Shown here: piece by piece, positions 6,734-36,422 of the stretch | How positions within the stretch are numbered: position 1 is the stretch's first letter | Layout: each line of letters starts with the position of its first letter | Source: Cochliopodium minus | Lineage: Eukaryota; Discosea; Himatismenida; Cochliopodiidae | Direction: 5' to 3' | DNA length: 60,643 bases | NCBI GenBank assembly: GCA_024220525.1 | Contig: JAMYWO010000023.1 | Span: 177,444 to 238,086, forward strand | Made by a program: the position numbers and the translations under genes | The notes under the pieces: generated by a model | What the model saw: the letters and a program-made list of their open reading frames with translations, nothing else | The model's database searches: none | Told to the model about the DNA's origin: nothing

Positions 6734-9700
6734 ATGATAAATGAAAGATATCTTCAAAGTTTGATTGATGATTTTTATTATGATGATTATGATCATTATC
6801 AAAATGAATATGATAGTTTTGAAATGGCTATAGAAGAAATTGAAATAATAGATAAAATGGAAGAAGAGGATTTTATAGAAGAATATGGGTATGATGATTC
6901 AGATAAGCCAATGATTTGCTTTGAAATTGCCCAGAAAATGATAGAAAATAAAATCAATTTGAATATCAGCCAAAAATTATATGGAATCCCCATTCTCAAT
7001 GTATGTAAAAATGAAAAGAAAGATTTATTTGAGATTTTGAGGTTGTTGATCGAAAATAATTGTGATATAAATTTAAAAGATATCAATAATAATTCTCCTC
7101 TTCATATATTGGCCGAAAATAAATCAATCAAGATTGATATTATAAAATATATGATTGAAAACAATAGTTATTTGGATCAGTTTGAAAAAAACAAAGATGG
7201 ATGCACTCCATTACATCTTATCTGTGATAATCAATCCATTTCAGAAGAAATTATTCAATATTTGATCGAAAATAAAAGCACTGTGAATGCATTGGACAAG
7301 GAAGAAAGAACTCCTCTTGACATTTATTCTCAAAACGAAAACTTTTGTCACAAACCAAAAATAGTTGATCATTTATCTAAAAATAACCTTTTTTTAGAAG
7401 CACCATTTATAATTGCTTGTAAATACATCAACAAAAAATTTTTTACCCCCTTGGATGTGATAAAAATTTTGATTGAAAATAAATGTGATTTGAATTTATC
7501 AACCAAAAAAAAATATCCTTTCCACTTCATAAGTAAACTTGAAAACATTTCTGAAATACAAGATTATGCCATGAAAAATGGAGAATTTGATCTAACAGAA
7601 GGTATTAATTTATTTTTATTTTCATTTAATTATTTTTAAATATTTTTCTGATTTAATTTTTAGATTTTATTTTTGTTATTTTCCATTAATTTTATTTTTT
7701 AATAAAAAAGAAATTATCCAAAGTTTCACTCCCTTTCATTTTGTTTGTCTAGACCAAGATGTAAAAACGCAAGTCATCAAACTTTTGGTTGAAAAAGGAG
7801 CAAAATTGGATCTCAATAATCCATTAGGCTATTCTCCTCTCCACATGATATTTAACAACATCGATTTTCATTACAATAACGTTTTGTTTATGTTTGAAAA
7901 TAATAGCAATATTCACCCACTTGATGTAAACTTCCCTTTCTATACTTCTGAGAATGAAATCAAATCTGGAAATTCAATTATTAACTTTGAAGAATCAAGG
8001 GATTGGGTAAATAGCCAAGAATTTAAAGAACAGAAATTTATTGAAGAATGTTCCCACGAGCCCGTAGTTGAATTATCCAAAAAACGAATTCTGTCTCAAA
8101 TCTTTTCAATATATACTCCAAACTATACATACAAAGACATTCTCTATGAACCTGTCAATTTAATACCTTTAACTCTACATATTGTGAAGGAAATGGTTAA
8201 AAACAAAGTCAATTTGAATTTTAGAGACAAGATACACGGGTTTCCCATTCACAACGTTTGCAAAAATGACAATGAAAATTCTTTACAGATTTTGAAGGTA
8301 AAAGAAAAAAAATTTTTATTTATTTTTTTCATTTTTTTCATTTTTTTTATTAAAAAGATTTTGGTTGAAAATAATTGTGATTTAAACAAAAAAAATTTCT
8401 ACAATAATTCTCCTCTTCACATTATTGCCCAAAAAAAAAAATTCAACATTGATTTCATAAAATATATGATTGAAAACAATAGTTATATTGACCAATTTGC
8501 AAAAAATAGAGATGGAGAAACTCCTTTCCATATTTTTTGTGACAACGAAGATTGTCCTCCTCAAATAATAAATTATTTCATTGAATTGAAAAGTGATTTG
8601 AATGATATTGATTGTTTCGGATATACTCCTCTTCATTGTGTTTGTAGTAGAAAAAACATGCTGCCTACTGGTTTAATCTACAAAATGATAGAAAATAAAG
8701 CGGGAATTAACTTTGAAAATTTTTCACCTCTTCATTTATTGTTTCTCAACAAAAATGTATCTTTAAAAGTTGTGAAATGTTTAGTCGAAAGTAAAGCAGA
8801 TTTAACTTTTAATTACCAAATTGATAATGACTACACTGCTCTTCATCTTGCTTGTTCCAATGAATGCATATCTGAAGAAATCATCCAATATTTAATTGAA
8901 AATAAATGTAGTGTGAATGCCAAGGGTAATAATAATAAAACCCCTCTAAGAATTTACTCTCAAAATAGAATTGAAATTAATTTGAAAATCATCGAACTTT
9001 TGTCCATGAGTGTCTTTGAACTGGAAGAGGAAAGAGCATCTAAAGAAAATTCTTTTTTCAGCCTATTTGAAGAAAAAAATCCAAATTTAAATTCAATAAA
9101 ATCATTGATTGAAAATAAAGCAAATTTAAATATGACAAATTCAGAGATGAAAACTCCTCTTCACATAATTTTAAAAAACAAAACACAAAGTTTAGATTTG
9201 ATAAAATTAATGATTGAAAATAAAAGTTATCTGAATAGTATTGATGATTTAGAGAATATTCCTCTTCATTATGCTTGTGACAATAAGAATATAGATTTTG
9301 AAATAATAAAATGTTTGGTTGAGAACAAAAGTGATGTGAATCTTAGAGCTCGTTTAAAACTGAAAAAACGGGAATTACAAACACCTCTTGAGTATGCATG
9401 TTTAAAGATTTCTAATTGCGAAATTTTAAAGTATTTAGTTGATGCTAAATCATTTATTGATTCCTCAATAGTCATCAAATGGTTTAAAGGTTATGGTAGA
9501 AATGATAATGCTAATTTTATTGGGAGATTGTTCTATTGTTTGATGAGTGGAGGTTTGAATTTGAAGAGTCTCGATGGAAGAATAGATCATATTGTTTTTG
9601 AAGATATTTACAATAGGTATCAGAAATGTAAATTGTGGTCCTTTGAAACACATAAATTCTTTACAAATTTCGTTCAATACAAAATATTCAATTTCATTGT

Positions 9701-10178
9701 TTGTGTCAAATTTCTGTCAAAGAAAACGAGAAAAATATTTCCAAGACCTGTCATTTACATCATCATCAATTTTTTTATCAAACACCTCGTCTCTTCAGAT
9801 ACAAACGAATATTTTAATGAAAATGAAAATCAAATTGACCTTGGAAACGATTACCCTCATTACAACTTTCTTGAATTTGAAGATCAGAACAACTATTTTG
9901 AAATAGAAGAACAAAATCATTCCCCTGATTACATTTACAACGAACAAGACTTTAACACTGATCAATACCAAGAGGAAATCTATGATAATGGTGGGCACTT
10001 TGACAATGATGATATTGAAGTTTTTTCTGAGAATGATCAAAAGATTGATGAAGAACAGTTCGATGAAATTGAAGAATTTTCTGAGGATCAATGTGAAATC
10101 AACATTAAGAAAAGAAAACATGAATTAGATTTCGACAATCAATCTCCTGATTCAAATAACAAAAAATATAAAAAATGA
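6734..10178 (+). CDS. large ankyrin-repeat protein with acidic tail
   Basis: Exons 6734-7601, 7753-8297 and 8358-10178 give 1077 residues in frame. The protein is mostly ankyrin repeats of about 33 residues with the recurring core (TPLHxxCxN...IIxxLIENKxDxN). The consensus 'LIENK' is shared with the two ankyrin genes at 20-23 kb, indicating a local family. After the repeats comes a module ending FPRPVIYIIINFFIK, similar to the C-termini of the RCC1 and ThuA proteins, then a roughly 110-residue tail rich in Asp, Glu, Asn and Tyr with a basic cluster (KKRKHEL, NNKKYKK) that could act as a nuclear signal. There is no signal peptide or membrane segment. Ankyrin plus an F-box-like end would suggest a substrate adaptor for ubiquitin ligation; that is inference. 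Confidence 0.85.
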
Positions 10179-14345: not shown

Positions 14346-17300
14346 ATGAGCACAGTGAAAAAGAAAGTAGATAATCGTATCAAGAAACATATTGAAAATG
14401 GTGTAATATTGGGTCATAGAAGTTTTTTTGTAATAGTGGGAGATAACGGAAAGGATCAGGTGAATAAAAAAAATTTTTTAAAAAAATTTTGATAATTAAT
14501 CAAGAATCATCAAAAATTCAATTGCTCTCAAAAAGGTAATGAATCTTCATTACATGTTATCCAAAACAGTAGTAAAAGCAAGACCATCCATACTTTGGTG
14601 TTATAAAGATTCATTGGGATTTTCAAGGTAAAAAAAAAAATGAAAGAAAATTGTGAGAATATCATTATATAATCAAAGGAGATTGAAAAAATAAGCAATC
14701 ATATGATTATAAATTAAATATATTCAAAGAATTACATCATTAACCTCGATTTATTAATATTTAAACTTATTTCATAAAGTAACAAAAAGAAGAGAATGCA
14801 AAACATGAAAAAGAAAAAAAGTAAGGGATTGTTGGATACAAACTCTGAAAACGCATTCGAGCTTTTCATCTCATCCACAAACATAAGATTCACATTTTAC
14901 AGGGAGACACACAAGATCTTGGGTAACACCTTTGGAATGTGCGTGTTGCAAGACTTTGAAGCTCTCACACCCAACTTGCTAGCTAGAACAATTGAAACAG
15001 TAGAAGGAGGAGGATTGATTGTTTTATTATTAAAATCACTCAACTCTTTGAAACAATTGTACACCATGACTATGGTAAATTTAAATATGTTTTTTAAAAA
15101 TGATCTTGAATATAACTTTCTTTCTATCCATTAATAATGAAGCAGAAAATTTTAAACTTTCTTATATTTAGGATGTCCACTCCAGATTTCGTACTTCTTC
15201 TCACCAAGAAGTAACAGGAAGATTCAACGAAAGATTCATTCTCTCCCTTGGAACATGTTCCAGATGTTTAGTAGTGGATGATGAATTAAATATTTTACCT
15301 ATTTCCACTCATGCAAATATGATAAAGTCAATACAAAAACCAGAATCAGGGAGTGTATTTGAAAGAGAACTTGATGACTTGAAAAATAATTTGAAGGACA
15401 GCGAAATCATCGGAAATATCATCAACAACACCAAGACTTTGGATCAAGCCAAATCTTTGCTTGTATTCTTTGAAGCAATTTCCGAGAAGACCCTCAGAAC
15501 TACTGTTGCTTTGACTGCCTCTAGAGGTAGAGGAAAATCCGCTACTATGGGTATTTTTTATTTTATTTATTTTTCGTTTTTGGGTTTTTAAAAAATGATG
15601 ATTTTGAAAATAACTTTCGTTCTACCTATTAATAATGAAGGAGAAAATTTTTTCACTGATTTTAAAAATAAAATATTCATTTATTTATTTACTATTTTTA
15701 TTTATATTTATTTTTATCTAAATTTTTTTATTTCTAAAAGGTATGGCAATTGGGGCAGCTGTTGCATTGGGATACAGTAACATTTTTGTTACTTCTCCAT
15801 CCCCCGAAAATTTAAAAACTCTTTTCGAATTTGTGTTCAAGACATTCGATGCACTCGGAATGAAAGAACACACTGACTATGAGCTCATCGAGTCTACTAA
15901 CCCCGAATTCGAAAAGTGCGTCGTAAGAGTTAACATTTTCCATACACACAGACAAACTATCCAATACATTCAACCTACCGACTACGAAAGAATTTCACAA
16001 GCAGGTAATCTATCTTTTTTATTATATTTTTGATTTTTGATTTTTTAAAAATGATGATTTTGAAAATAACTTTCGTTCTACCTATTAATAATGAAGGAGA
16101 AAATTTTTCACTGATTTTAAAAATCAAAATATTAATTTTGTTTCCATTATTTTTATTTCTTATCATATTTTTTCTTTTTAAAATTGTTTTTTTTTGGAAA
16201 GAACTCGTTGTTGTGGACGAGGCTGCGGCCATCCCATTAGTGCACGTAAGAAGACTTTTCGGACCACACTTGCTCTTTCTCTCTTCCACCGTCAATGGGT
16301 ACGAAGGTACAGGCAGATCACTCTCTTTGAAGCTCATCAAGAACTTGCGTGACCAACAAAAGTTCCAAGGAGAACAAACTACCACTACAGGTGGAAGGGT
16401 TTTGAAAGAACTCACTTTGGACGAGCCTATTCGTTACTTTAAAGGAGATCCTGTCGAGGAATGGCTTAATAAGTTGTTGTGTTTGGATGCTGTTGTTCCT
16501 ACTGTTAAGACTGGTTGTCCGCATCCTTCTCAATGTAACTTGTAAATAATTTTTCATAAATAATTTGAANNNNNNNNNNNNNNNNNNNNNNNNNNNNNNN
16601 NNNNNNNNNNNNNNNNNNNNNNNNNNNNNNNNNNNNNNNNNNNNNNNNNNNNNNNNNNNNNNNNNNNNNTTTTTATTAAAGGTACTATGTTAATAAAGAC
16701 GCTCTTTTCTCTTACCACGATGTTTCAGAATCTCTTTTACAAAAAATCATGGCTCTCTTCGTAACATCTCACTACAAAAACACTCCCAATGATCTAATGT
16801 AAATAATTTTAAAACATTTTAAATTAAAGAATAAAACATTAATAAAATATCATCCAAAAATAATCCAAAATAAAAATAAAATATCATCAATTAAAAATTC
16901 AATTATTTTAAATAGGTTGATCAGTGATGCCCCTTCTCATCACATCTTCGTTTTGTTGGGACCTGTAAATGAAAAATCCACCAAACTCCCAGAAATTTTG
17001 TGCGCGATGCAAGTCAGTTTGGAGGGAGGCATCAGCAAGGACAGCATCAAGCAGACTTTGGGTCTTGGAATAAAGGCTGCTGGTGATTTGATTCCTTGGA
17101 CTGTATCCAGGCAATATCAAGATCACGAATTTGCTTCTCTATCTGGTAAAAAAAAAATTACTAATTTATTAACTATTATTTTTATTTTATTTATTATTCT
17201 ATTTTATTCTTTTTATTCTTTTAAATTTTGACTTTTTTAAAAATATGATGATTTTGAAAATGACTTTCGTTCTACCTATTAATAATGAAGGAGAAATTTT

Positions 17301-19933
17301 TTCACTGATTTTTAACAATCAAAAATGAATTATTACTCGATTTTAATACTTATTTTTATTTATTTTTTTTACTTATTTTATTTTTATTTTTTTTATTTTT
17401 ATTATTATTTTACAAGGTGCAAGAATCGTAAGAATAGCAACACATCCAGATTACCAAAAAATGGGTTACGGAAGCAGATGTCTCGAGCTCTTGACCCAAT
17501 ACTACGAAGGCAAATTCTACGATCCAAGCATCGTAGAAGAAAAGGAAATGGAAGACGAAGAAAATGTCGTCAACTACTCTGAAAAAAACTCCCTTTTGCA
17601 CGAGAAAATTCAGCCCAGAAAGATCAAGAAATCTCTCTTGACTTCTTTGGAGGAGAGAAAGCCAGAGGAGTTGCATTATATTGGAACAAGTTTTGGCGTT
17701 ACCATAGGCAAAAAAAAAAAAATTCTAATTTTTTCGAATTATTTTAATTATTTATTTTTATTTTTATTTTTATTTTTATTTTTATTTTGATTATTTTGAT
17801 TTTTATTTTTATTTTTATTTTTATTTTTATTTTGATTATTTTAGATTTGTTCAACTTTTGGCAAAAAAACAGTTTTTTGCCCGTTCACATTTCTTTGACA
17901 GCTGTAAATTCAAATTTTCATTTCATTATGTTCTTATTCATTTTTTTGTTTTTAATTTTTTTATTTTTAAAAATGATGATTTTGAAAATGACTTTCGTTC
18001 TACCTATTAATAATGAAGGAGAAATTTTTTCACTGATTTTAAATTCATTAATGAATTATTTTTTTTTGTTAATTAATATATTTTTTTATTTATTTTTGAT
18101 TTTGATTTTTATTTTTTTATTTTAATTTTTTTAATTTATTTTTTAAATAGAACGACATAACAGGAGAATTTTCAACAATCATGTTAAAATTGTTGGACAA
18201 AGAAAACAGCACACTCGAAATCGACAAAACATGGATCACCTCTTTCTCCGAAGACTTCAAAAACAGAATGTTGAGCTTGTACGCCCGCCAGTTCAGAGAG
18301 TTCAAATCCAACTTGTGTCTCTCCATGCTCAACTACTCCAAAATGAGCAACGAAATCAAAGAAGGAAAGCAAAACAAGGATAATCTCATAAAATATGACG
18401 ATTTGACAAAACACTTTTCTGAATACGATCTCAAAAGGTATTTTTTTATTTGATTTTTCTACCTTAGTTTCATTTTATGTTTTTTAATTTTTTCAAATCT
18501 ATTTTATTATTTTTTTATTATTTTTATTTTTTTTATTATTTTTATTTTTCTTATTTATTTTTTGATTTTTTAAAAAATATGATGATTTTGAAAATGACTT
18601 TCGTTCTACCTATTAATAATGAAGGAGAAATTTTTTCACTGATTTTGAAAATCAAAAAAGATTATTTTTCATTTTTTTTCTCATTTTTTTTTTATTTTAT
18701 TTTTTTAAAAATTTTTTTTTTTGTAAATTTAATTTTCTTTTTTTATTAAATTTAATTTTTTGAAAAAAGGTTGTCATCCTATACAAAGAACTTGGTTGAG
18801 TACACAATAATACTGGACATAGTACCTACTTTGGCAAACTTATACTTCCGTTACAAATTTGATTTCTTGCTCAACATCTCACAAGCCTGCATCTTGGCTG
18901 GAATGGGACTTCAAAGAAAAACTGTTGAGGGTAATTTAATTTTTTTTTTTTCATTATTGTTAATTTATATTCACTTTTTGATTTTTTTAAAAATTTTTTT
19001 ATAATATTTATTAATTTTTATTTTTCATTTTATTTATTGTTTATTTTTATTCATTTTTGATTTATTTTTCATTTTTATTTTATTTTTATTTTTATTTTAT
19101 TTATTTTGTTAGAGGTCGCTTCGGAGTTAAGCATGCAAGTGAGCCAGGTCTTGGGTCTCTTCAGCCGTATCCTCAGAAAATTTGCCAGCTACATTGACAA
19201 GCTCCACGAAGACGACGTAGCTAAAAGCATCCCTGAATTGTCTGGTGGTGGTAATCACTCCTTTTGATTTATTTTTTTTATTTTTATTTTTTTATTATTT
19301 TTACTTTTTTATTTTTAAAAATGATGATTTTGAAAATAACTTTCGTTCTACCTATTAATAATGAAGGAGAAATTTTTTCACTGATATTAAAATACAAAAA
19401 AAAAATTTAAAATTATTTTAAATCATTTTTTATTATTTTTTTTTTTATTTTTTTTATTTTCATTTTTTTTTTGTTCAAAAGATAAATTGATGTTGCCCAT
19501 TGACAAGTCTTTAAACGATGAGTTGGAAGAGACCGCACAAAATCTCGAAAAGAAGAAAAAGAGCAAAGAAGATCAAAACCCTCTCATCTCTTACTTTCTC
19601 AACGAAGAAGGTAAAATTTTTTTCAATTTTTTTTTTATTTTTTAAAAAACTTTTTTTTATTTTTAATATTTTATTTATTAAATTTTAAAAAACTTTTTAG
19701 GTTATACTATTAATGACAGTGATAGAGATTGGGACAATGCTTTGAAGACTGTCACTGAAGGAAACATTCCTAATTCCATCAGCATCAAAAAGAAACACAA
19801 TCCAAAGGGTTCAAACAACAGCAACAAAAACAACAAAGGATCCACCCCTAATAACCAGAAAAACAAGAGAAATTCCACACACAAAAGTCCCAAAAATCTT
19901 AACAGCAACCAAAAGAAAAGAAAATTCAAATGA
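14346..19933 (+). CDS. NAT10: RNA cytidine acetyltransferase, NAT10/Kre33 type
   Basis: Fifteen exons give about 1043 residues (human NAT10 has 1025). Visible landmarks: N-terminal KKVDNRIKKHIENGV; Walker A in ASRGRGKSA; VVVDEAAAIP (helicase motif II); CPHPSQCNLYYVNKDALFSY; a GNAT acetyl-CoA loop in RIATHPDYQKMGYGSR; GDLIPWTV; NFWQKNSFLPVHIS; and a basic, Asn-rich C-tail for nucleolar targeting. Kre33/NAT10 makes N4-acetylcytidine in 18S rRNA and tRNA, using box C/D snoRNAs as rRNA adaptors. Exon ends: 14459, 14627, 15074, 15550, 16004, 16541, then 16682-16798, 16916-17145, 17417-17707, 17845-17903 and 18151-18437, and further exons from 18769, 19112, 19482 and about 19700. The intron at 17708-17844 starts with GC. 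The scaffold gap falls within an intron, so no coding is lost. Six introns hold intact-looking copies of one C/D snoRNA and a seventh holds a decayed copy. Confidence 0.95.
15091..15163 (+). ncRNA. decayed copy of the intronic C/D snoRNA
   Basis: Lies in the intron 15075-15171 of the NAT10 gene. It aligns along its length with the six other copies (ATTAATAATGAAG core retained), but the C box reads ATGATCT, the guide has CTTTCTTTCT for CTTTCGTTCT, and no CTGA D box remains. It is most simply a snoRNA pseudogene. Confidence 0.75.
15585..15668 (+). ncRNA. intronic box C/D snoRNA, copy 1 (18S guide)
   Basis: Sits in the NAT10 intron 15551-15740. C box ATGATGA at 15595-15601, D box CTGA at 15656-15659, 9-bp terminal stem TTTTTAAAA/TTTTAAAAA just outside the boxes. 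The guide TAACTTTCGTTCT (15611-15623) is fully complementary to the conserved 18S rRNA segment AGAACGAAAGTTA and is followed by a weak D'-like CTAC and C'-like ATGAAGG. Expected role: 2'-O-methylation guide, released from the debranched intron. Confidence 0.85.
16041..16124 (+). ncRNA. intronic box C/D snoRNA, copy 2 (18S guide)
   Basis: In NAT10 intron 16005-16201. C box 16051-16057, D box 16111-16114, terminal stem TTTTTTAAAA/TTTTAAAAAT. Same guide as copy 1 (16067-16079), fully complementary to AGAACGAAAGTTA of 18S rRNA. Confidence 0.85.
16570..16669. other. 100-N scaffold gap inside a NAT10 intron
   Basis: The flanking exons join as ..CNL|YYVN.., as expected for the family, so the gap lies in intron 16542-16681. 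Neighbouring introns carry repeated snoRNAs, so an unresolved extra copy could be the reason for the gap; that is inference. Confidence 0.95.
17235..17318 (+). ncRNA. intronic box C/D snoRNA, copy 3 (18S guide)
   Basis: In NAT10 intron 17146-17416. C box 17245-17251, D box 17305-17308. The guide reads TGACTTTCGTTCT: the one change from copy 1 (A to G) leaves a G-U pair with the 18S target. Terminal stem imperfect but present. Confidence 0.85.
17962..18045 (+). ncRNA. intronic box C/D snoRNA, copy 4 (18S guide)
   Basis: In NAT10 intron 17904-18150. C box 17973-17979, D box 18033-18036, guide TGACTTTCGTTCT as in copies 3 and 5. Terminal stem TTTTTAAAA with TTTTAAATT. Confidence 0.85.
18566..18653 (+). 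ncRNA. intronic box C/D snoRNA, copy 5 (18S guide)
   Basis: In NAT10 intron 18438-18768. C box 18579-18585, D box 18639-18642, guide TGACTTTCGTTCT. The outer sequences GATTTTTT and TTTTGAAAATC form a terminal stem. Confidence 0.85.
19310..19394 (+). ncRNA. intronic box C/D snoRNA, copy 6 (18S guide)
   Basis: In NAT10 intron 19251-19481. C box 19321-19327, D box 19381-19384, guide TAACTTTCGTTCT as in copies 1 and 2. The 3' side of the terminal stem (TATTAAAATA) is weaker than in the other copies. Confidence 0.8.
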
Positions 19934-19966: not shown

Positions 19967-21791
19967 TTAAAAAAATTTAAATTTGCTGAACTTTTTGAAA
20001 AAAGTTTCGATCTCCATTCCCTTTAAATTCTTTATTCTCAAAGATAAAGTTTGATTATCTTTTGCCCAATCCAATGGAGAAGTTCCAGAATAACTCAAAA
20101 TGTTTGGATTAGCACCATTCTCCAACATAAATTGAATTATATCAACACTAACATCTTTTAATGAACAAGCGAAATGAAAAGGAGTGTGGTTTTTATTGTT
20201 TTGTTTGTTCATATCTCCTTTGTGTTGAAGAAAAAACTTTATGACATCCAATGATATTTTCTTTTTGTTGACACAAAAGTTGTGAAGAAGAGATAAACCA
20301 TCACTTAATGAAGTGTTGATATCCACTTTGTATTCCATGAAAATCTCTACATCACGAAGAATAATGTTATTTCGGTTCAAATAATTCAAAAAAGGAGAAG
20401 CTTTCGATAAATTATCAATCAAATTTGGATCTGCATTGTTCTGGAGAGCAAATTTGATCATTTCAATACCAAAATGGTTGTTTTTAGTGATAACATGAAA
20501 GGCAGACTCAGAATCACCGCACCTAGCATTAAAACTTGCATTTTTATGTACCAAATACTTTAGAAATTCAAAATCCATAAAACTATCGGAACATAGATAA
20601 TGGAATGGAGTTGCTTTGGTATATCCTTCAGCGACCAAATTCAAATCTGCTTTATGCTCAAGAAACAATTCTATTGTTTTTTTATCTCGATAGTAACCAT
20701 GACTTACCAAGTGAAAGGGATTCCGTTTGTCTTTTATATTTTGGAGATTGGGATCGCAATTACTTCTTAACAAGTACTCGCAACCTTTTATTTTGTCTAT
20801 GGTTGTATTCAAATAACAATATTGGTACAAAACTCCTTCATTATTATGATTTTTTGCATTCACATCCATTTTACTATTAAAAAAATTTGCAATTAAAAAA
20901 AAATCCTTTAATTTGGATTTCCAATAAAAACTTGAAAAAGTGTCTTACCTCTCAATCAACAACTTCATGATTTCGAATTCTTTTGCCCTTGTACACGAAA
21001 ATATTTTTGGATTATTCAAATCCGCTTTGTTCTCAATCAAAAGCTGGACATGCTCCTTTGTAAATTTATTATTGGAAAGGGCAAATTCAAAAACAGAATT
21101 GGAAATCCCCTCGTTCATAATATCTTGGTAGCTCTGTATTCTGTTCAGAAAATAATCGAATACTTTCACTGGCATTTGTTTTTTATCGTATTTGCAAAAA
21201 TGATGGATTGGAGTAAGTCCATAAATACCTGATTGCAAACATATTTTTTTTAATCAATTTTTAATTCAAGTAATTTAACTTGATCCTCTTATGAGTATTT
21301 TTATATTATTTTTTATATTTTTTTTTACTTTTTAATATCTTCAATTCCATTCCATCAAGCAATTCCATGTTCTTTTGATGAGTCAAGAAATCATATTCTT
21401 CCAATAATTTCATTTCATTTTCTGATGTTTGGTTTTAAAAAACAAATCCTCATTTAATATGAATTAATTCAATATATATTTTTTTTTTTTTACCAATCCT
21501 CACAATTTCTATGGAGGGTCTATTTATCCCTTTTTCAACCAGATAATCTTTATATGTAATAAATCTCTTCCATATCTTGTTTAAAAATTATTTTTATATT
21601 TATATTTCATCAAACACTAAATTTCATTTTGTAAGATTGGCCTAATTTACCTGATCCTTTTTGATTGTTTTGTTCCAATGTTTATTTAAACGAGCCAATT
21701 TCCCAAGATCAGGAATTTGCAAGAAAGAAGATAAATAGATACAAAGAGGTATTATCAATTTTCCCAATCCTTGATCATTCTCATCATCCAT
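19967..21791 (-). CDS. F-box-like/ankyrin protein, paralog 2
   Basis: Reads on the minus strand from 21791 (MDDENDQGLGKLIIPLCIYL), through small exons (..IWKRFITYKDYLVEKG, then a short exon near 21330-21430), an exon around 21238-20945, and a long last exon about 20879-19967. The N-terminal 60 residues have the F-box cadence (hydrophobic helix, IPDLGKLARLNKHWN, then IWKRF). Eight or more ankyrin repeats follow (LIENKADLN, TPFHFACSLKDVSVDIIQF). It ends GMEIETFFKKFSKFKFF. The gene directly upstream (21871-23269) is a paralog with the same architecture and tail. F-box/ankyrin proteins usually recruit substrates to SCF ubiquitin ligases; that role is inferred only from architecture. The alternative start at 21833 is less likely, because the paralog begins with the same MDD. 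Confidence 0.75.
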
Positions 21792-21870: not shown

Positions 21871-23269
21871 TTATTTTAATTTGTTGTATTTTTTGAAAAA
21901 ACTCTCAACATCCATTCCCTTTGTATTCTTTATTCTTGAGGACAACTCGGGATTAGTTTTTGCCCAATGTAAAGGAGAACTTCTGTTGTTATTCGAAATG
22001 AATGGATTAGCACCATTCTCCAACATAAACTGAATGATTTCGACATCAATATCTTTGAGTGAACAAGCGAAATGAAAAGGAGTGCAACCAGTGTGATTTT
22101 GTTTATTGATGTCACCTTTATTTTGAAGAAAAAACTTAATGACATCCAATGATATTTTCTTTATGTTTGAACAAAAGTTATGAAAAATGGAAAAGCCATA
22201 ATTAGATGAAACATTTAGATCCGCTTTGTATTCTACGAACAACTTTACAACATCCAATCCAACATTTTTATCGTTAACAACGAAACTGAAGGGAGTTCTT
22301 TTTTCGTTACAAGGATGATTAGGATCAAGTTTCTTTTGAAGTAAATATTCATAGCATTGATACAAATTTTCTCCGAAACTGTTTTCGCAAAATTTGTACA
22401 AAATGCTTCCTCCACTTTTAGTATCCTTCGCATTCAAATCTGCTTTGTTTTCTATCAAAAATTTCATTGTTTCAAAGTTATTGGAAGTAATGCATCCAAA
22501 TATTGGAGGTATTTCATCCTTTTCCGTTGCGTTGATGTTTGCTTTCTTATCGACTAAATATTGAATCTTTTTCAGCTTAAATTTTTTATTGGATACTGCT
22601 CTATGCAGTACACTTGATCCCAACCTGCAATCATTCACGTTTGCTTTGTTATCCAGTAAATATTCGAAAACTTTTTTCTTGACTTTTTTCTTTTCAAATG
22701 CACAAGCAACCAGTATTGGAGTTAATCTAAAATGATCTTTTTTTTTTTTTTTTGTGAATTTAAATTTTTTGTTTTTCTTTTTTACTTGTTATTGTTCCTA
22801 ATTCTGACTCCAACAAAAAAAGATTGTTAGGATATGCTTTGAATTCAAAATCCAACAACAATGGCATTTCAAATTTTTCTGTTTCATCATCATTGTGAAT
22901 TAATAATCCGTTTTAAAAAAAAAAAAAATTTATATTTTTAAATTTACCTATCTTCACAATTTCAATTGATGGTCTATCTATTCCTCTTTGGTTGATATAA
23001 TCTTTATATCTTATAAATCTATCCCATATCTGAACAGATAAAATATTATTATTTTTCATAAAGCAAATTATGTCAAATTTCGTAAATTTATGGATGATAA
23101 CAGTTTGAATGATTGTTTAATTTACCTGATTACTTTTGATTATTTTATTCCAATGTTTATTTAAAAGGGACAATCTTCCTATTATTGGAATATCAGAGAA
23201 ACTACATATGTAAATGCAAAGAGGTTTAATCAAAAAAGCAAATCCTCCCTCATTATGATTATCATCCAT
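21871..23269 (-). CDS. F-box-like/ankyrin protein, paralog 1
   Basis: Exons on the minus strand: 23269 to about 23127 (MDDNHNEGGFAFLIKPLCIY), about 23034-22947 (IWDRFIRYKDYINQRG), about 22887-22790 (starts after GAAACAG), and about 22741-21871. The F-box-like N-terminus (IPIIGRLSLLNKHWNK) is followed by seven or more ankyrin repeats (HRAVSNKKF.., LIENKADLNAKD, TPFHFACSLKDIDVEIIQF), ending GMDVESFFKKYNKLK. Intron positions match the downstream paralog, so the pair is a tandem duplication. Repeat consensus 'LIENKADLN' and codon use match the ankyrin gene at 6.7-10.2 kb. There is no signal peptide or membrane segment. Confidence 0.75.
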
Positions 23270-31462: not shown

Positions 31463-34400
31463 ATGGATGATAGTGAGTATAGCGATTATGAAGAAAATAA
31501 TTATAAAAGACCAAGAAGATCAAATAGAAGAAGAAGAGGAAGAAATTCACTCATACAAAAAAAATCAAATTGGGTTTACATTTTTTTTTATTATTTTTCA
31601 ATCTTGATTTGCTTTTTTTGAAAACTAATCATTCCCGAAATTAATTAATAATCTTGAATAAACATTATATTTGGAGATTAAACTCATATTTATGTCATTA
31701 TATTCATATTTTGATTGGATATAAATCGTTATTTTGTCAGTATTTTTTTTAATTTGACTGTTTATTATTTTTCTCTGTTTATAAAATTATATTTTTTAAA
31801 AAAATGTGTATAGATTGAAGATGATGAAGACATAGAATATGAAGAAAGTTTTCAACAAAGTTTTGATGATGAAGAGGATGAGATAAGCGTAGAATTGAAA
31901 CCAAGAAGATCAAAAAGAAATAAAGTAGATGAGAATGTGGAAAATGAAAATAGGAGATATCAGACAAGAACAAGAAGACAAGCAAATAAGAGGGATGATT
32001 TTATAGTATATGATGAAGAAAACGAGGACGATTTCATCAATCAAGAAATAAAGGTTGAAACTTCAAAGAGACCACAAAGAACATCTTCAAGAAGAGGGAA
32101 TAATAATGTATCTTTTGTTCAAGATTTTGAAGAGGAAAAGGAAGAGGTTCCATTGATGGAGGGGGTAAAAGAAGAAGAAGAATATATTCCCAAAAAGGAT
32201 TCTCGTCAGGAGAGAAGGGATAATAGAATTGAGAAAAGGAATGATAATGTAATTGAAAACAATATTAATGGAGAAGAGGTTATAAATGTAAGATTTTTTG
32301 AAGGAAAATGGGAATATTATTTATCTAATTGTTAATCAGAATTTTATATCTCTTCATTATCATCTATTCTTTCCATTTTCATCAACAAATTTTAATTTCA
32401 TCAGAATAATCAACAAAATAACGATATTCCTATCATACCACCATCCAATATACAAATACCCAAAAATATGAAAAAGGATGATGACGAATATACTCCCATG
32501 AGCTCTGAGGAAGAGGAGATCTATCAAATCGAGAAGAGGAACTTTTCTGGAAGGAATACAAGATCCAGAAGGGAAGATAATGACAATGATGAGCCAAGAA
32601 GGAGTGGAAGAACGAAAAAGAATGTCCAAAGATATACTCCCATCAAAAAAACAGGATTGAATCCAAGAATGGGAGGAAATACAAATATCTACAAGGTAAA
32701 ATTCATACGATCGGAACTTTATCAATATAATTCCTTTATTTTACTTTTTCTTTTTGTCTTGATATTTTAAAATAATAGGGATTGACTGATGAACAAATCT
32801 TTGAGATGAAACAAGCAGAGAAGCTTCATTACCAGAAATCTTTAATTGCCCCTGTTAACGGAGAAAACCCATCGAGAGTGCCTTTCAAATCCTCTGCATG
32901 GCAAAAAGCAGATATTGATCCAATGAGCATAGATCAGTCGATTACTTTTGATTCCATTGGTGGCTTGGATCATCACATCAAATCCTTGAAAGAGATGGTT
33001 ATCTTGCCTTTACTTTATCCTGAAGTGTTCAAAAAGTTTTCTTTGTCTCCACCCAAAGGAGGTAACAAACAAACTAATTTTTCCACAAGTTGATTATCCT
33101 AAAAATATTTTTTAAACTACTTTTTAGTTTTATTTTATGGACCTCCAGGTATACAAAATTTGAAATTACGAAAATTTAAAACTTTAAAATTTTATTAAAG
33201 GTACTGGTAAAACTTTAGTGGCAAGAGCTTTGGCTAATTCTTGTTCTCAAGCGGGAAGGAAAGTCAACTTTTTCATGAGAAAGGGAGCGGATTGTTTGTC
33301 CAAATGGGTGGGTGAAGCGGAAAGACAACTGAGGATATTATTCGATCAGGCCTACAGAATGCAGCCGTCCATCATCTTTTTTGACGAAATAGACGGTCTT
33401 GCACCTGTGCGTTCCTCCAAACAAGAACAAATCCATAGTTCGATTGTTTCTACTTTGTTAGCTTTGCTTGATGGTCTTGATGATAGAGGACAAGTTGTTG
33501 TTATTGGTGCTACAAATAGGATAGACAACATTGATCCTGCTTTGAGAAGACCAGGGAGATTTGATCGTGAGTTTCTCTTCAATTTGCCTCCCAAAGAAGC
33601 ACGTAGGGACATTTTGACCATTCACACCAAATCTTGGAACCCTCCTCCATCTGAAAAGATAATCGAGTTTATTTCGGAGAAAACAGTGGGGTATTGTGGT
33701 GCGGATTTGAAGGCTTTGTGTGCAGAGGCTACGCTCAGAGCTCTTAGAAGAATCTATCCTCAAGTTTATTCTTCAAACAGTAAGTTGTTAGTAGACTTGA
33801 AGAAAATATCGATTATTGAAGAAGATTTCCTTCGTGCCACCAAAGAAATTGTTCCTTGCTCTTTCAGATCTTCTGTTGTTAATGTTGCTTCTTTGTCCGA
33901 GGAGTTGAGACCGTTACTCAACCCAGAATTGGACAAGATCATGGAAGTGATCCACAAGATATTTGTTCCGAGAAGTGCCTACAAGTTTGAAAGGAAAGAA
34001 GATAACGATGACAAAGTGGATAATCACGAAACACATGGAAACAAAAAGTTTTTTCTTGGAGATGAGTTTTTACAATTCAAAATTTTCACGCATCGCCCAA
34101 GACTCATCTTGTATGGAAAAGAAGGTTTGGGACAAGGCATCCTTGCATCTGCAATCTTGAACGTTTTGGAGAGGTTTCCCATGTTCTCACTAGACCTGGC
34201 TTCGATCTACATGAACTTATCTTCGCACACACTTGAAGAATGTGTTGTACAAGCTTTCCAAGAAGCCAAGAAGAAATCTCCTTCCATCATTTACATTCCT
34301 AACATTGACAGTTGGTGGGCTGTCGCTTCTTCTTCTCTCAAACTTGTTCTCATCAACTTGTTGAACGATTTGGACCCTTCCATGCCCATCTTCTTGTTTT

Positions 34401-36422
34401 CCACTTGCATTTGCCCCACCTTCAATAGTTTGGACCCTACCCTCCAAAACTTGTTCACTACTGATTATTTGCTTAACAGTCCAACCAAGGAACAAAGGAA
34501 ATCTTTCTTTGACAATCTCTTAAAGATATCTTGTGAACCAATCTATGTCAGGTAAAATTTATTTATTTTTTTATTTTTATTTTTATTTATTTTTTTATTT
34601 TTTATTTTTATTTATTTTTATTTTTTATTTTTTATTTTTATTTTCATTTTTATTTTTCATTTTGATATTTCATTTATTTTCATTCTTTTCAAAGACATAC
34701 TTACAACCCTCCTCCATTACCACTTGCGGAAATAGTTGTTAGCGAAGAGGACAAGAAGAAAGACGAAGAGGAACAGTTAGAACACATCAAGGAGTTCAGG
34801 CTCACTCTCAGGGAGCTCCTCCTTTCTCTCATCAGCAAGAAAAAGTACTACATTTTTATCAGACCTGTTGATCCTTACGATCATCCTACTTACTATGAAG
34901 TTATCAAGAATCCACTTTGTCTCAACATGATGGCAATAAGAATTGAAAATAATAAGTACAGGTAAAAGATTTTTTTTATTTTTTATTTTTTTATTTTTAT
35001 TTTTTAAATATTTCCTTTTTATTTTTTTTTTATTTTTTTTTTTTCATTATTAGATCCCTCCAAGAGTTTTTTGATGACATAAAACTAATTGTGAGCAATG
35101 CACAACTCTTCAACCCCATAGAAGATACCAGCATGATCTACTTCAAAGCTCAATCACTGCTTGAAGACGCAGAAAGCATGATCTCGAAAATGAAAAAGAA
35201 ACTCTCCGTTCAGAAGATGGAGAAGATTATGCAGACAGTAGACTTGAACATCTTGAACCAACTCAAGAATATCAATACGAACAATACTGATTTGAATGTG
35301 AGCGGAGTTAATTTGAATGTGAGCGGGGTTAATTTGGACACAAGTGGGGTTGATTTGGGTAACAACAATGTTAACAATGGTGGTGTTGTTGATGGCACTA
35401 ATAACAGCAATATTGATCCAAATCAATATGATAATATCAACAGGTAAACTTTTTAAATTTCTTTTTTAAATTTTTATTATTTTTAAATTTAAAATTTTAA
35501 ATAAATTTATTTTTAATCAATTTATTTTTCAAAAACGAAGGTTCAATGTTCAACAACAGCCAAATCAATTCCCTTACAACCTTTTGAATACCACAAACAA
35601 CAACTCTTCTGACTCCATCCCTTATAACAATAACAACAATGTAAATAATGTTAATAACAACTTCAACAATGTCAATAATGTCAATAACAACTTTAACAAC
35701 ACAAACTATCCCAANNNNNNNNNNNNNNNNNNNNNNNNNNNNNNNNNNNNNNNNNNNNNNNNNNNNNNNNNNNNNNNNNNNNNNNNNNNNNNNNNNNNNN
35801 NNNNNNNNNNNNNNAACAACAATTTAACCAACAATACCAATGTGAACAACTTACCTAACAGTAACAACACTTACGGAAACAATGTCAATTACATTAACAA
35901 CGACAACATTGTCCAAAACAACCAAGTTTACAGCAACTCCAACACCTTTCAGACAAACAACCAGACATCTGAATTACCCATCTTTCCAAAGTCTTCCAGT
36001 CTCGACTTTATCATCAACAAAGATGATAACAATGTCCCAATCAACAACGACAACAAAGTTAACAACAATGATACTCTTAGTTTGTCCCCAACTAAAGTTG
36101 TCAAAAGTACTCAAAATTCTCCAAAAACAAACAGTGATGTCATAGAAAACAATGGTAAAGATTTTTTCTTTTAATTTTTTTTTCAAATTAAATTTTTTTG
36201 AAAGATATGATTGATGAAAAAGAGGATTTGGAAGTTTTGGTTGACAAAGGTAAGTTGGATCTTCTTAGTGAGACTTTGGTCAACAAAACCAACGATTACT
36301 CTGTCGATTCTTTGCACAATCTTTTCATCATCATCCGAAAGATCATTTACACTTACCAATCTGAAAAGGATAAAACTCAATTGTTGAATGAAATTTCTGA
36401 ATTTATAGATAAAAATTTATAA
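31463..36422 (+). CDS. bromodomain AAA ATPase, ATAD2/Yta7 type
   Basis: N-terminal exons are acidic/basic and intrinsically disordered (EDDEDIEYEE, KPRRSKRNK). The AAA1 module begins ITFDSIGGLDHHIKSLKEM; Walker A is split over three exons (..KGV|LFYGPPG|TGKT, the middle exon 33128-33148 being 21 nt); Walker B is IIFFDEIDGLAP; sensor and Arg fingers are GATNRIDNIDPALRRPGRFDRE. A degenerate second AAA domain follows (LILYGKEGLGQG; no Walker A Lys-Thr), then a bromodomain-like region (LLLSLISKKKYYIFIRPVDP.., YYEVIKNPLCLNMM, FNP). The tail has three NVSGV-type tandem repeats and a long Asn-rich stretch interrupted by a scaffold gap. Yta7/ATAD2 proteins act on histone H3-H4 in chromatin. The bromodomain Asn is seen only as QLFNP. 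Confidence 0.93.
35715..35814. other. 100-N scaffold gap in Asn-rich coding repeat
   Basis: The gap lies inside an AAC/AAT-rich exon of the ATAD2-like gene. Both flanks read in the same frame as poly-Asn. Gap length is nominal, so the real repeat length is unknown. Confidence 0.95.

What the first reader, a model, noticed from the sequence alone, without database searches (positions are those of the whole stretch)
15091..19394. A family of box C/D snoRNAs occupies successive introns of the NAT10/Kre33 gene
Six copies of a roughly 65-nt core (C box ATGATGA to D box CTGA) with flanking terminal stems lie in six different introns, plus a decayed seventh. No other gene in the window has them. Copies keep the C box, D box, guide and internal core while flanking intron sequence differs freely, which is what selection on a processed RNA looks like. 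Copy number this high within one host gene is unusual.
Basis: partly seen in the sequence, partly recalled or inferred. Interest (0 to 1): 0.93.

Follow-up and report, generated by a model that had tools for sequence, protein, structure and literature searches.

The report
Multi-copy U59-like snoRNA in NAT10 introns
Six introns of a ribosome-related gene in an unnamed eukaryote each carry a near-identical copy of what looks like a well-known small RNA that marks where ribosomal RNA gets a methyl group; the same sequence sits in three other genes of that genome, so this is a generous example of a known arrangement.

Summary
The window carries an intact 15-exon NAT10/Kre33 gene; 6 of its 14 introns (4, 5, 8, 10, 11, 13) hold a near-identical 64-65-nt box C/D unit in sense orientation, and intron 3 a decayed one. 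The unit has C and D boxes, C', a degenerate D', closing stems (better than shuffles in 8 of 12 genomic copies), and the guide of U59 (human)/snR54 (yeast), which directs 2'-O-methylation of one 18S rRNA adenosine. Rfam aligns snR54 or SNORD59 end to end, but below the curated cut-offs (best 42.9 of 50 bits).

'Only this gene' is true of the window, not of the genome: a pattern search gives 12 intact copies in four host genes, NAT10 (6), zuotin/DNAJC2 (4), threonyl-tRNA synthetase (1) and CCT-gamma (1), all intronic and sense. Conservation stops at the closing stem; stem sequences differ by host. This fits duplication in cis plus copying between genes, both described for box C/D snoRNAs.

Expression and this organism's 18S target could not be tested. 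Real, well supported, a new member of a known kind; moderate interest.

The parts
14346..19933 (+). Host gene: NAT10/Kre33 RNA cytidine acetyltransferase, 15 exons, 14 introns
   Evidence: Spliced ORF of 1042 residues without internal stop; Pfam TmcA_N, NAT10_TcmA_helicase, GNAT_acetyltr_2 and tRNA_bind_2 far over cut-off; homologues of part of it
15091..15160 (+). Decayed copy in intron 3 (15075-15171): C box, guide and D box all altered
   Evidence: Profile match 41.4 bits, E 6.7e-12; sequence
15595..15659 (+). snoRNA copy 1, C box to D box, intron 4 (15551-15740)
   Evidence: Rfam snosnR54 41.3 bits at 15591-15661
16051..16114 (+). snoRNA copy 2, intron 5 (16005-16201)
   Evidence: snosnR54 38.9 bits
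17245..17308 (+). snoRNA copy 3, intron 8 (17146-17416)
   Evidence: SNORD59 29.8 bits
17973..18036 (+). snoRNA copy 4, intron 10 (17904-18150)
   Evidence: SNORD59 31.1 bits
18579..18642 (+). snoRNA copy 5, intron 11 (18438-18769)
   Evidence: SNORD59 29.3 bits
19321..19384 (+). snoRNA copy 6, intron 13 (19251-19481)
   Evidence: SNORD59 30.1 bits; core identical to the copy in the ThrRS gene
15611..15623 (+). D' guide element U(A/G)ACUUUCGUUCU (copy 1; the same element starts at 16067, 17261, 17989, 18595, 19337)
   Evidence: 11-mer ACTTTCGTTCT in 12 of 12 intact copies; same block in the Rfam snR54 and SNORD59 consensus
15625..15628 (+). Degenerate D' box CCUA (copy 1), at the position of CUGA in Rfam snR54
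   Evidence: Alignment
15632..15638 (+). C' box AUAAUGA (copy 1); AUGAUGA in three of four zuotin copies and in the CCT copy
16035..16129 (+). Copy 2 with its closing stem, the best-scoring of the 12: TTTTGATTTTTTAAA / TTTTAAAAATCAAAA
   Evidence: Stem score 11.5, shuffle p 0.0025
16570..16669 (.). Assembly gap of 100 N inside intron 6; a further copy could be hidden here
   Evidence: Read directly

Best explanation
Each unit is an intronic box C/D snoRNA gene of the U59/snR54 kind. The NAT10 pre-mRNA is spliced, the debranched intron is trimmed by exonucleases back to a snoRNP that assembled on the C/D boxes and closing stem, and the ~70-80-nt RNA guides fibrillarin to 2'-O-methylate the adenosine of 18S rRNA that pairs five nucleotides upstream of D' (Am1031 in human, Am975 in yeast in the numbering of PMC3511168). 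The six copies arose by copying from intron to intron inside NAT10, with a separate series in zuotin (4) and single copies in ThrRS and CCT-gamma. Several copies may give more of the RNA per transcript and let single copies decay, as in intron 3. Shown: sequence, boxes, guide, intron position, genome-wide count, where conservation ends, presence of a fibrillarin gene. Inferred: expression, processing, target, methylation, dosage, and the direction of copying.
For: C and D boxes and the 11-nt guide are the same in 12 of 12 intact copies (the copies were collected by that 11-mer, but the similarity searches found the same twelve). Rfam aligns snosnR54 or SNORD59 end to end to 6 of 6 window copies at E 0.0015-0.0072 and to 4 of the 6 other copies at E 0.0076-0.34. 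Identity is 97-98% in the core and, from 40 nt outward, not more than 2 sd above shuffles in NAT10 and zuotin. Closing-stem arms pair better within a host gene (mean score 8.0; own arms 7.4) than swapped between hosts (3.6). The guide duplex with a recalled yeast-like 18S segment is -17.4 to -18.5 kcal/mol for the three intact guide types and -11.6 for the decayed copy; 2000 shuffles of one core gave a mean of -6.7 and a minimum of -15.4. 12 of 12 copies are sense and intronic. A fibrillarin gene is in the same genome, 4 exon matches on C157. U59, AtsnoR59 and snR54 are listed for one and the same 18S site in human, Arabidopsis and yeast (PMC3511168, passage read); Neurospora CD49 guides it with a 13-nt D' element (PMC2780460, passage read).
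Against: No copy reaches the Rfam gathering score (0 hits in the window; best 42.9 against 50), and two of four zuotin copies are not listed even at E<=1. D' is CCUA, two letters off CUGA. Stems are AT-rich: 8 of 12 beat shuffles at p<0.05, four do not (0.0505, 0.065, 0.072, 0.256), the ThrRS 5' arm pairs as well or better with the NAT10 3' arms than with its own, and with only four hosts no test across hosts was run. A box-plus-stem scan recovers only 8 of the 12 copies. The organism's own 18S was not found, so the target is inferred. No RNA data.
Confidence: 0.93

Rival explanations
1. A small intron-borne mobile element or introner-like repeat that happens to resemble a snoRNA; the copies are parasites of introns with no RNA function.
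For: 12 copies in four unrelated genes, one with a 64-nt core identical to a NAT10 copy; the zuotin series changes stepwise, as in repeated copying.
Against: Only 12 intact copies found in 44.65 Mb, all sense and intronic (only four host genes, so orientation alone is weak evidence). Homology stops at the closing stem, not at the splice sites, which an introner would not do. Boxes and guide are kept while the one clearly dead copy has changes in all three. The guide equals that of a snoRNA family known from human, plant and yeast.
Confidence: 0.04
2. The RNAs are functional C/D snoRNAs, but the point of placing them in NAT10 is regulation of NAT10 in cis (for example by competing with splicing), as reported for a snoRNA in NOP56.
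For: NAT10/Kre33 acetylates 18S rRNA with the help of C/D snoRNAs (start of abstract of PMC5464676 seen; passage of PMC7277114); half the intact copies sit in it. Title of a NOP56 cis-regulation paper seen in the reference list of PMC11028025.
Against: The other six copies sit in three genes without such a link; the conserved guide is that of an 18S methylation snoRNA. Alternative splicing was not looked for.
Confidence: 0.08
3. The RNA is an acetylation guide (snR4/snR45/U13-like) for NAT10 itself.
For: Host gene is the 18S acetyltransferase.
Against: The conserved antisense is that of the U59/snR54 methylation guide; the stretch before D varies in length and letters between copies, so no second conserved guide is seen. 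Pairing with the acetylation sites of 18S was not tested.
Confidence: 0.01

Closest known systems
Yeast snR54 (Rfam RF00473) and human SNORD59/U59 (RF00273), clan CL00065
   Same: C, D, D'-guide layout and the guide block ACUUUCGUUCU; matched end to end
   Different: Below both gathering scores; D' is CCUA instead of CUGA; shorter than the 87-position snR54 model; twelve intact copies in this genome
Multi-copy C/D families in different introns of one host gene (human families, PMC8178906; chicken cis-duplications such as GNL3 introns 5, 7 and 9, PMC2653536)
   Same: Same arrangement and inferred duplication in cis
   Different: Six intact copies in one protein gene, more than the single-host chicken examples in the passages read (identity between copies was not compared); different host genes
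Intragenomic snoRNA mobility, 'constrained drift' model (PMC3511168), and snoRNA copying in Plasmodium (PMC2656528)
   Same: A snoRNA found in introns of several unrelated, probably broadly expressed genes
   Different: Here copying between genes and repeated copying within genes are both seen for one RNA; the Plasmodium paper reports mostly single-copy snoRNAs

Membership tests
Box C/D snoRNA | C box RUGAUGA and D box CUGA near the ends | tested here: met
   12 of 12 intact copies
Box C/D snoRNA | Short terminal stem bringing C and D together | tested here: met
   Met clearly in 8 of 12 (p<0.05 against shuffles); the other four have p 0.0505, 0.065, 0.072 and 0.256. Arms score 8.0 within hosts against 3.6 between hosts
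Box C/D snoRNA | Internal C' and D' boxes | tested here: inconclusive
   C' AUAAUGA or AUGAUGA; D' degenerate CCUA
Box C/D snoRNA | Stable nucleolar RNA bound by fibrillarin, Nop56/58, 15.5K | not testable with these tools
   Only a fibrillarin gene shown
U59/snR54 family | D' guide complementary to the 18S stretch AGAACGAAAGU (stretch recalled) | tested here: met
   Guide block identical to the consensus of RF00473 and RF00273; duplex with recalled 18S segments
U59/snR54 family | Rfam gathering score (50 or 45 bits) | tested here: not met
   Best 42.9 (snR54) and 31.1 (SNORD59); hence called U59/snR54-like
U59/snR54 family | Methylation of the cognate adenosine in this organism's 18S | not testable with these tools
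   18S not found (neither with a positive control); the family search RF01960 did not complete
Introner / mobile intron | Homology runs to the splice sites of the introns | tested here: not met
   From 40 nt outward identity is not more than 2 sd above shuffles

The most novel reading that the evidence does not exclude
One ancestral methylation guide is moving through introns of translation-related genes here: a founder enters a new host gene, picks up or evolves a host-specific closing stem, and is then copied serially from intron to intron (in zuotin the order of change would be intron 8, then 6, then 5 and 4). If so, this genome is a natural series for watching snoRNA mobility and concerted change, and NAT10 is tied to a methylation guide for the same 18S rRNA that it acetylates.
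Probability: 0.3. Interest if true: 0.5.

Novelty: new member of a known kind. Interest (0 to 1): 0.36.

Why it matters
It adds a case, from a eukaryote that I could not place, of a deeply conserved methylation guide amplified in introns of genes with roles in ribosome making, translation and folding (roles recalled); snoRNA annotation in protists and some fungi is called incomplete (PMC11028025, passage read). Host-specific stems around an unchanging core separate what selection seems to keep (boxes, guide, pairing) from what drifts, and the four host genes give a test bed for how C/D snoRNAs are copied within and between genes.

Tried and rejected
Mobile intron or introner: rejected because identity ends at the closing stem. 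Other C/D snoRNAs in the window: a box-plus-stem scan of both strands gave four of the six copies and nothing else; in the other loci it gave 3 of 4 zuotin copies, the CCT copy and not the ThrRS copy, so its threshold misses true copies. Second guide before D: rejected, the stretch varies in length and letters. Acetylation guide: disfavoured, not tested by pairing. U14 as a second multi-copy snoRNA in the genome: 3 matches, best E 1.43, none over cut-off; 9 of 14 control genomes ring at that level too. Genome-wide RF00473 search: of 18 listed matches 9 are known copies (6 in C23, 1 in C252, 2 in C263); the other nine are weak (best E 0.039) and were not studied; none is over the cut-off, and 8 of 14 control genomes ring at E<=10. 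One search also listed a fourteenth match on C116 at E 6.66, taken as chance. Public pattern scans gave 15 viral and 55 prokaryote stretches; I take these as chance matches to a loose pattern, but computed no expectation and examined none. An 18S pattern in viral contigs gave 0. Naming the organism: among the 120 best of 7943 CCT-gamma hits the highest identity is 68%; for a part of NAT10 (120 of 1630 hits listed) the nearest are unnamed ENA proteins, 75% over the whole query and 89% over 62% of it. The lineage stays unknown. Possible vestige of a further copy in intron 12 (18977-18993): the 17-mer taken from that place has 6 matches within one mismatch (itself included) against 0.7 expected; two of the six are the 5' flanks of copies 3 and 5, one lies in intron 11, two lie elsewhere in the window; suggestive only.

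Literature: NAT10 as a snoRNA host gene was sought. Of the 23 papers (15 listed) I looked at NAT10 passages in three (PMC8482216, PMC7277114, PMC8176728); there NAT10 appears as an enzyme or in a reference, not as a host. This does not show that no such report exists. No paper was read whole.

Full report
What is there. Six near-identical units lie in the region, with a decayed seventh. I spliced the host gene: 15 exons at 14346-19933 give an open 1042-residue protein with TmcA_N, the NAT10/TmcA helicase, GNAT_acetyltr_2 and tRNA_bind_2 domains, all far above cut-off. It is NAT10/Kre33. The copies are in introns 4, 5, 8, 10, 11 and 13; the decayed one is in intron 3; no copy is seen in introns 1, 2, 6, 7, 9, 12 and 14, but intron 6 contains a 100-N gap. 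In the 12 genomic copies the C box begins 40-197 nt after the 5' splice site and the D box ends 71-146 nt before the 3' splice site.

More than chance. The central 29-mer occurs 6 times in the window and in none of 100 shuffles. A profile made from the 12 genomic copies finds the six (83-87 bits), the decayed one (41 bits, E 6.7e-12), then only E 0.88; the six helped build the profile, the decayed one did not.

What it is. The unit has C AUGAUGA, D CUGA, C' AUAAUGA and a closing stem. At Rfam's curated thresholds nothing is reported. With a permissive search of 4.7 kb all 6 window copies match snosnR54 (38.9 and 41.3 bits, 2 copies) or SNORD59 (29.3-31.1 bits, 4 copies) end to end at E 0.0015-0.0072. 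Elsewhere the ThrRS copy scores 42.9 (E 0.0076), one zuotin copy 39.4 (0.036) and the CCT copy 34.7 (0.28) with snR54, and one zuotin copy 25.5 (0.34) with SNORD59; the other two zuotin copies are not listed at E<=1. The shared block is the guide, ACUUUCGUUCU, the same in 12 of 12 intact copies. Published tables give the target as 18S Am1031 in human and Am975 in Arabidopsis and yeast (PMC3511168, passage), Am971 in Neurospora with 13 paired bases at D' (PMC2780460, passage) and A989 in chicken with ATP5B as host (PMC2653536, passage). In the snR54 alignment the D' box falls on CCUA, which puts the same adenosine five bases upstream of D' (the +5 rule is recalled). With 18S segments written from memory the duplex is -17.4, -17.5 and -18.5 kcal/mol for the three guide types against a yeast-like target, and -15.1, -18.8 and -15.6 against a human-like one; the decayed copy gives -11.6 and -9.3; 2000 shuffles of one core gave a mean of -6.7 and a minimum of -15.4 against the yeast-like target. 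The organism's own 18S was not found by pattern or by a conserved segment (the tool notes that without a positive control such an empty answer shows nothing); the family search did not complete. So the target is inferred from the family.

Beyond the window. In the organism's genome (44.65 Mb, 598 contigs) the pattern C box - guide - D box matches 13 places, of which 12 are this sequence and one is unrelated; the reversed control gave 0. Similarity searches with three queries give the same 12 intact copies, two of them also the decayed one, and one of them a further match at E 6.66; one search gave the 12 alone. The tool calls its counts lower bounds, and gaps may hide copies. Six are in NAT10; four in introns 4, 5, 6 and 8 of a zuotin/DNAJC2 gene (J domain, zuotin homology domain, Myb domains); one in a threonyl-tRNA synthetase intron; one in a CCT-gamma intron. 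All 12 are sense to the host; as there are four hosts, orientation alone is weak evidence.

Selection and history. Cores are 97-100% identical within NAT10, 95-100% within zuotin and 89-92% between CCT and the rest; the ThrRS core equals NAT10 copy 6 letter for letter. Outside the core, identity is raised in the first 25 nt (the stem) and, from 40 nt outward, is not more than 2 sd above shuffles in NAT10 and zuotin. So the introns are not copies of each other; only the RNA unit is. Closing stems differ by host: TTTTTAAAA/TTTTAAAAA-like in NAT10, GAAATAA/TTATTTC in zuotin, TTAAATAATA/TATTATTTAA in CCT. Arms score 8.0 within hosts and 3.6 between hosts, which is what selection on an RNA stem would give. 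Against: four of 12 stems are not better than shuffles at p<0.05; zuotin copy 4 has a letter in its 5' arm (GAAACAA) that breaks the stem of its sisters; and the ThrRS copy has a NAT10-like 5' arm that pairs as well or better with the 3' arms of all six NAT10 copies than with its own, suggesting that it was taken from NAT10 and lost its 3' arm on insertion (inference). In zuotin, copy 4 (intron 8) is nearest to the NAT10 type, copy 3 (intron 6) has two further changes in the core, and copies 1 and 2 (introns 4, 5) one more: a ladder that fits serial copying from 3' to 5', though gene conversion would also do. In NAT10, copies 3, 4 and 5 are identical in the core and copies 1 and 2 differ by one base in length, so neighbours are most alike.

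Mechanism. Best reading: intronic C/D snoRNA released from spliced introns, guiding methylation of one 18S adenosine; several copies may raise dosage and tolerate loss. A fibrillarin gene is present. Expression, processing and methylation are inferred.

Compared with what is known. In human, C/D families mostly have their members in one host gene, explained by recombination in cis, while copying between genes is also known (PMC8178906, abstract and passages). Chicken shows the same, with one family made by both routes (PMC2653536, passages). 'Constrained drift' of snoRNAs among introns of broadly expressed genes is a published model (PMC3511168, abstract and passages). The case is therefore a new member of a known kind: a clean, high-copy example in a eukaryote without a close named relative among the hits listed. 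In Dictyostelium, by contrast, all but one of the C/D genes studied are intergenic (PMC8817022, passages), and in Plasmodium most snoRNAs are single copy (PMC2656528, passages).

Noticed in passing
16570-16669: Assembly gap of exactly 100 N inside NAT10 intron 6; gaps often fall on repeats, so another copy may be hidden.
   Followed up: no
18977-18993: Intron 12 holds TTTGATTTTTTTAAAAA, within one mismatch of the 5' flanks of copies 3 and 5, followed at once by a T run: possible vestige of a deleted copy.
   Followed up: partly
17708-17844: NAT10 intron 9 starts with GC instead of GT (GC-AG intron).
   Followed up: no
7785-10175; 19967-20869 (-); 21871-22638 (-): Reading frames on both sides of NAT10 look like ankyrin-repeat proteins; Pfam confirms ankyrin for the first, the other two were judged by eye.
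   Followed up: partly
33218-34552: AAA ATPase exon (Pfam AAA and AAA_lid_3); looks by eye like ATAD2/Yta7.
   Followed up: partly
L010 4525-4594 (-): The ThrRS copy is identical in its 64-nt core to NAT10 copy 6, but its 3' closing arm differs and pairs less well with its own 5' arm: looks like a recent copy between genes.
   Followed up: partly
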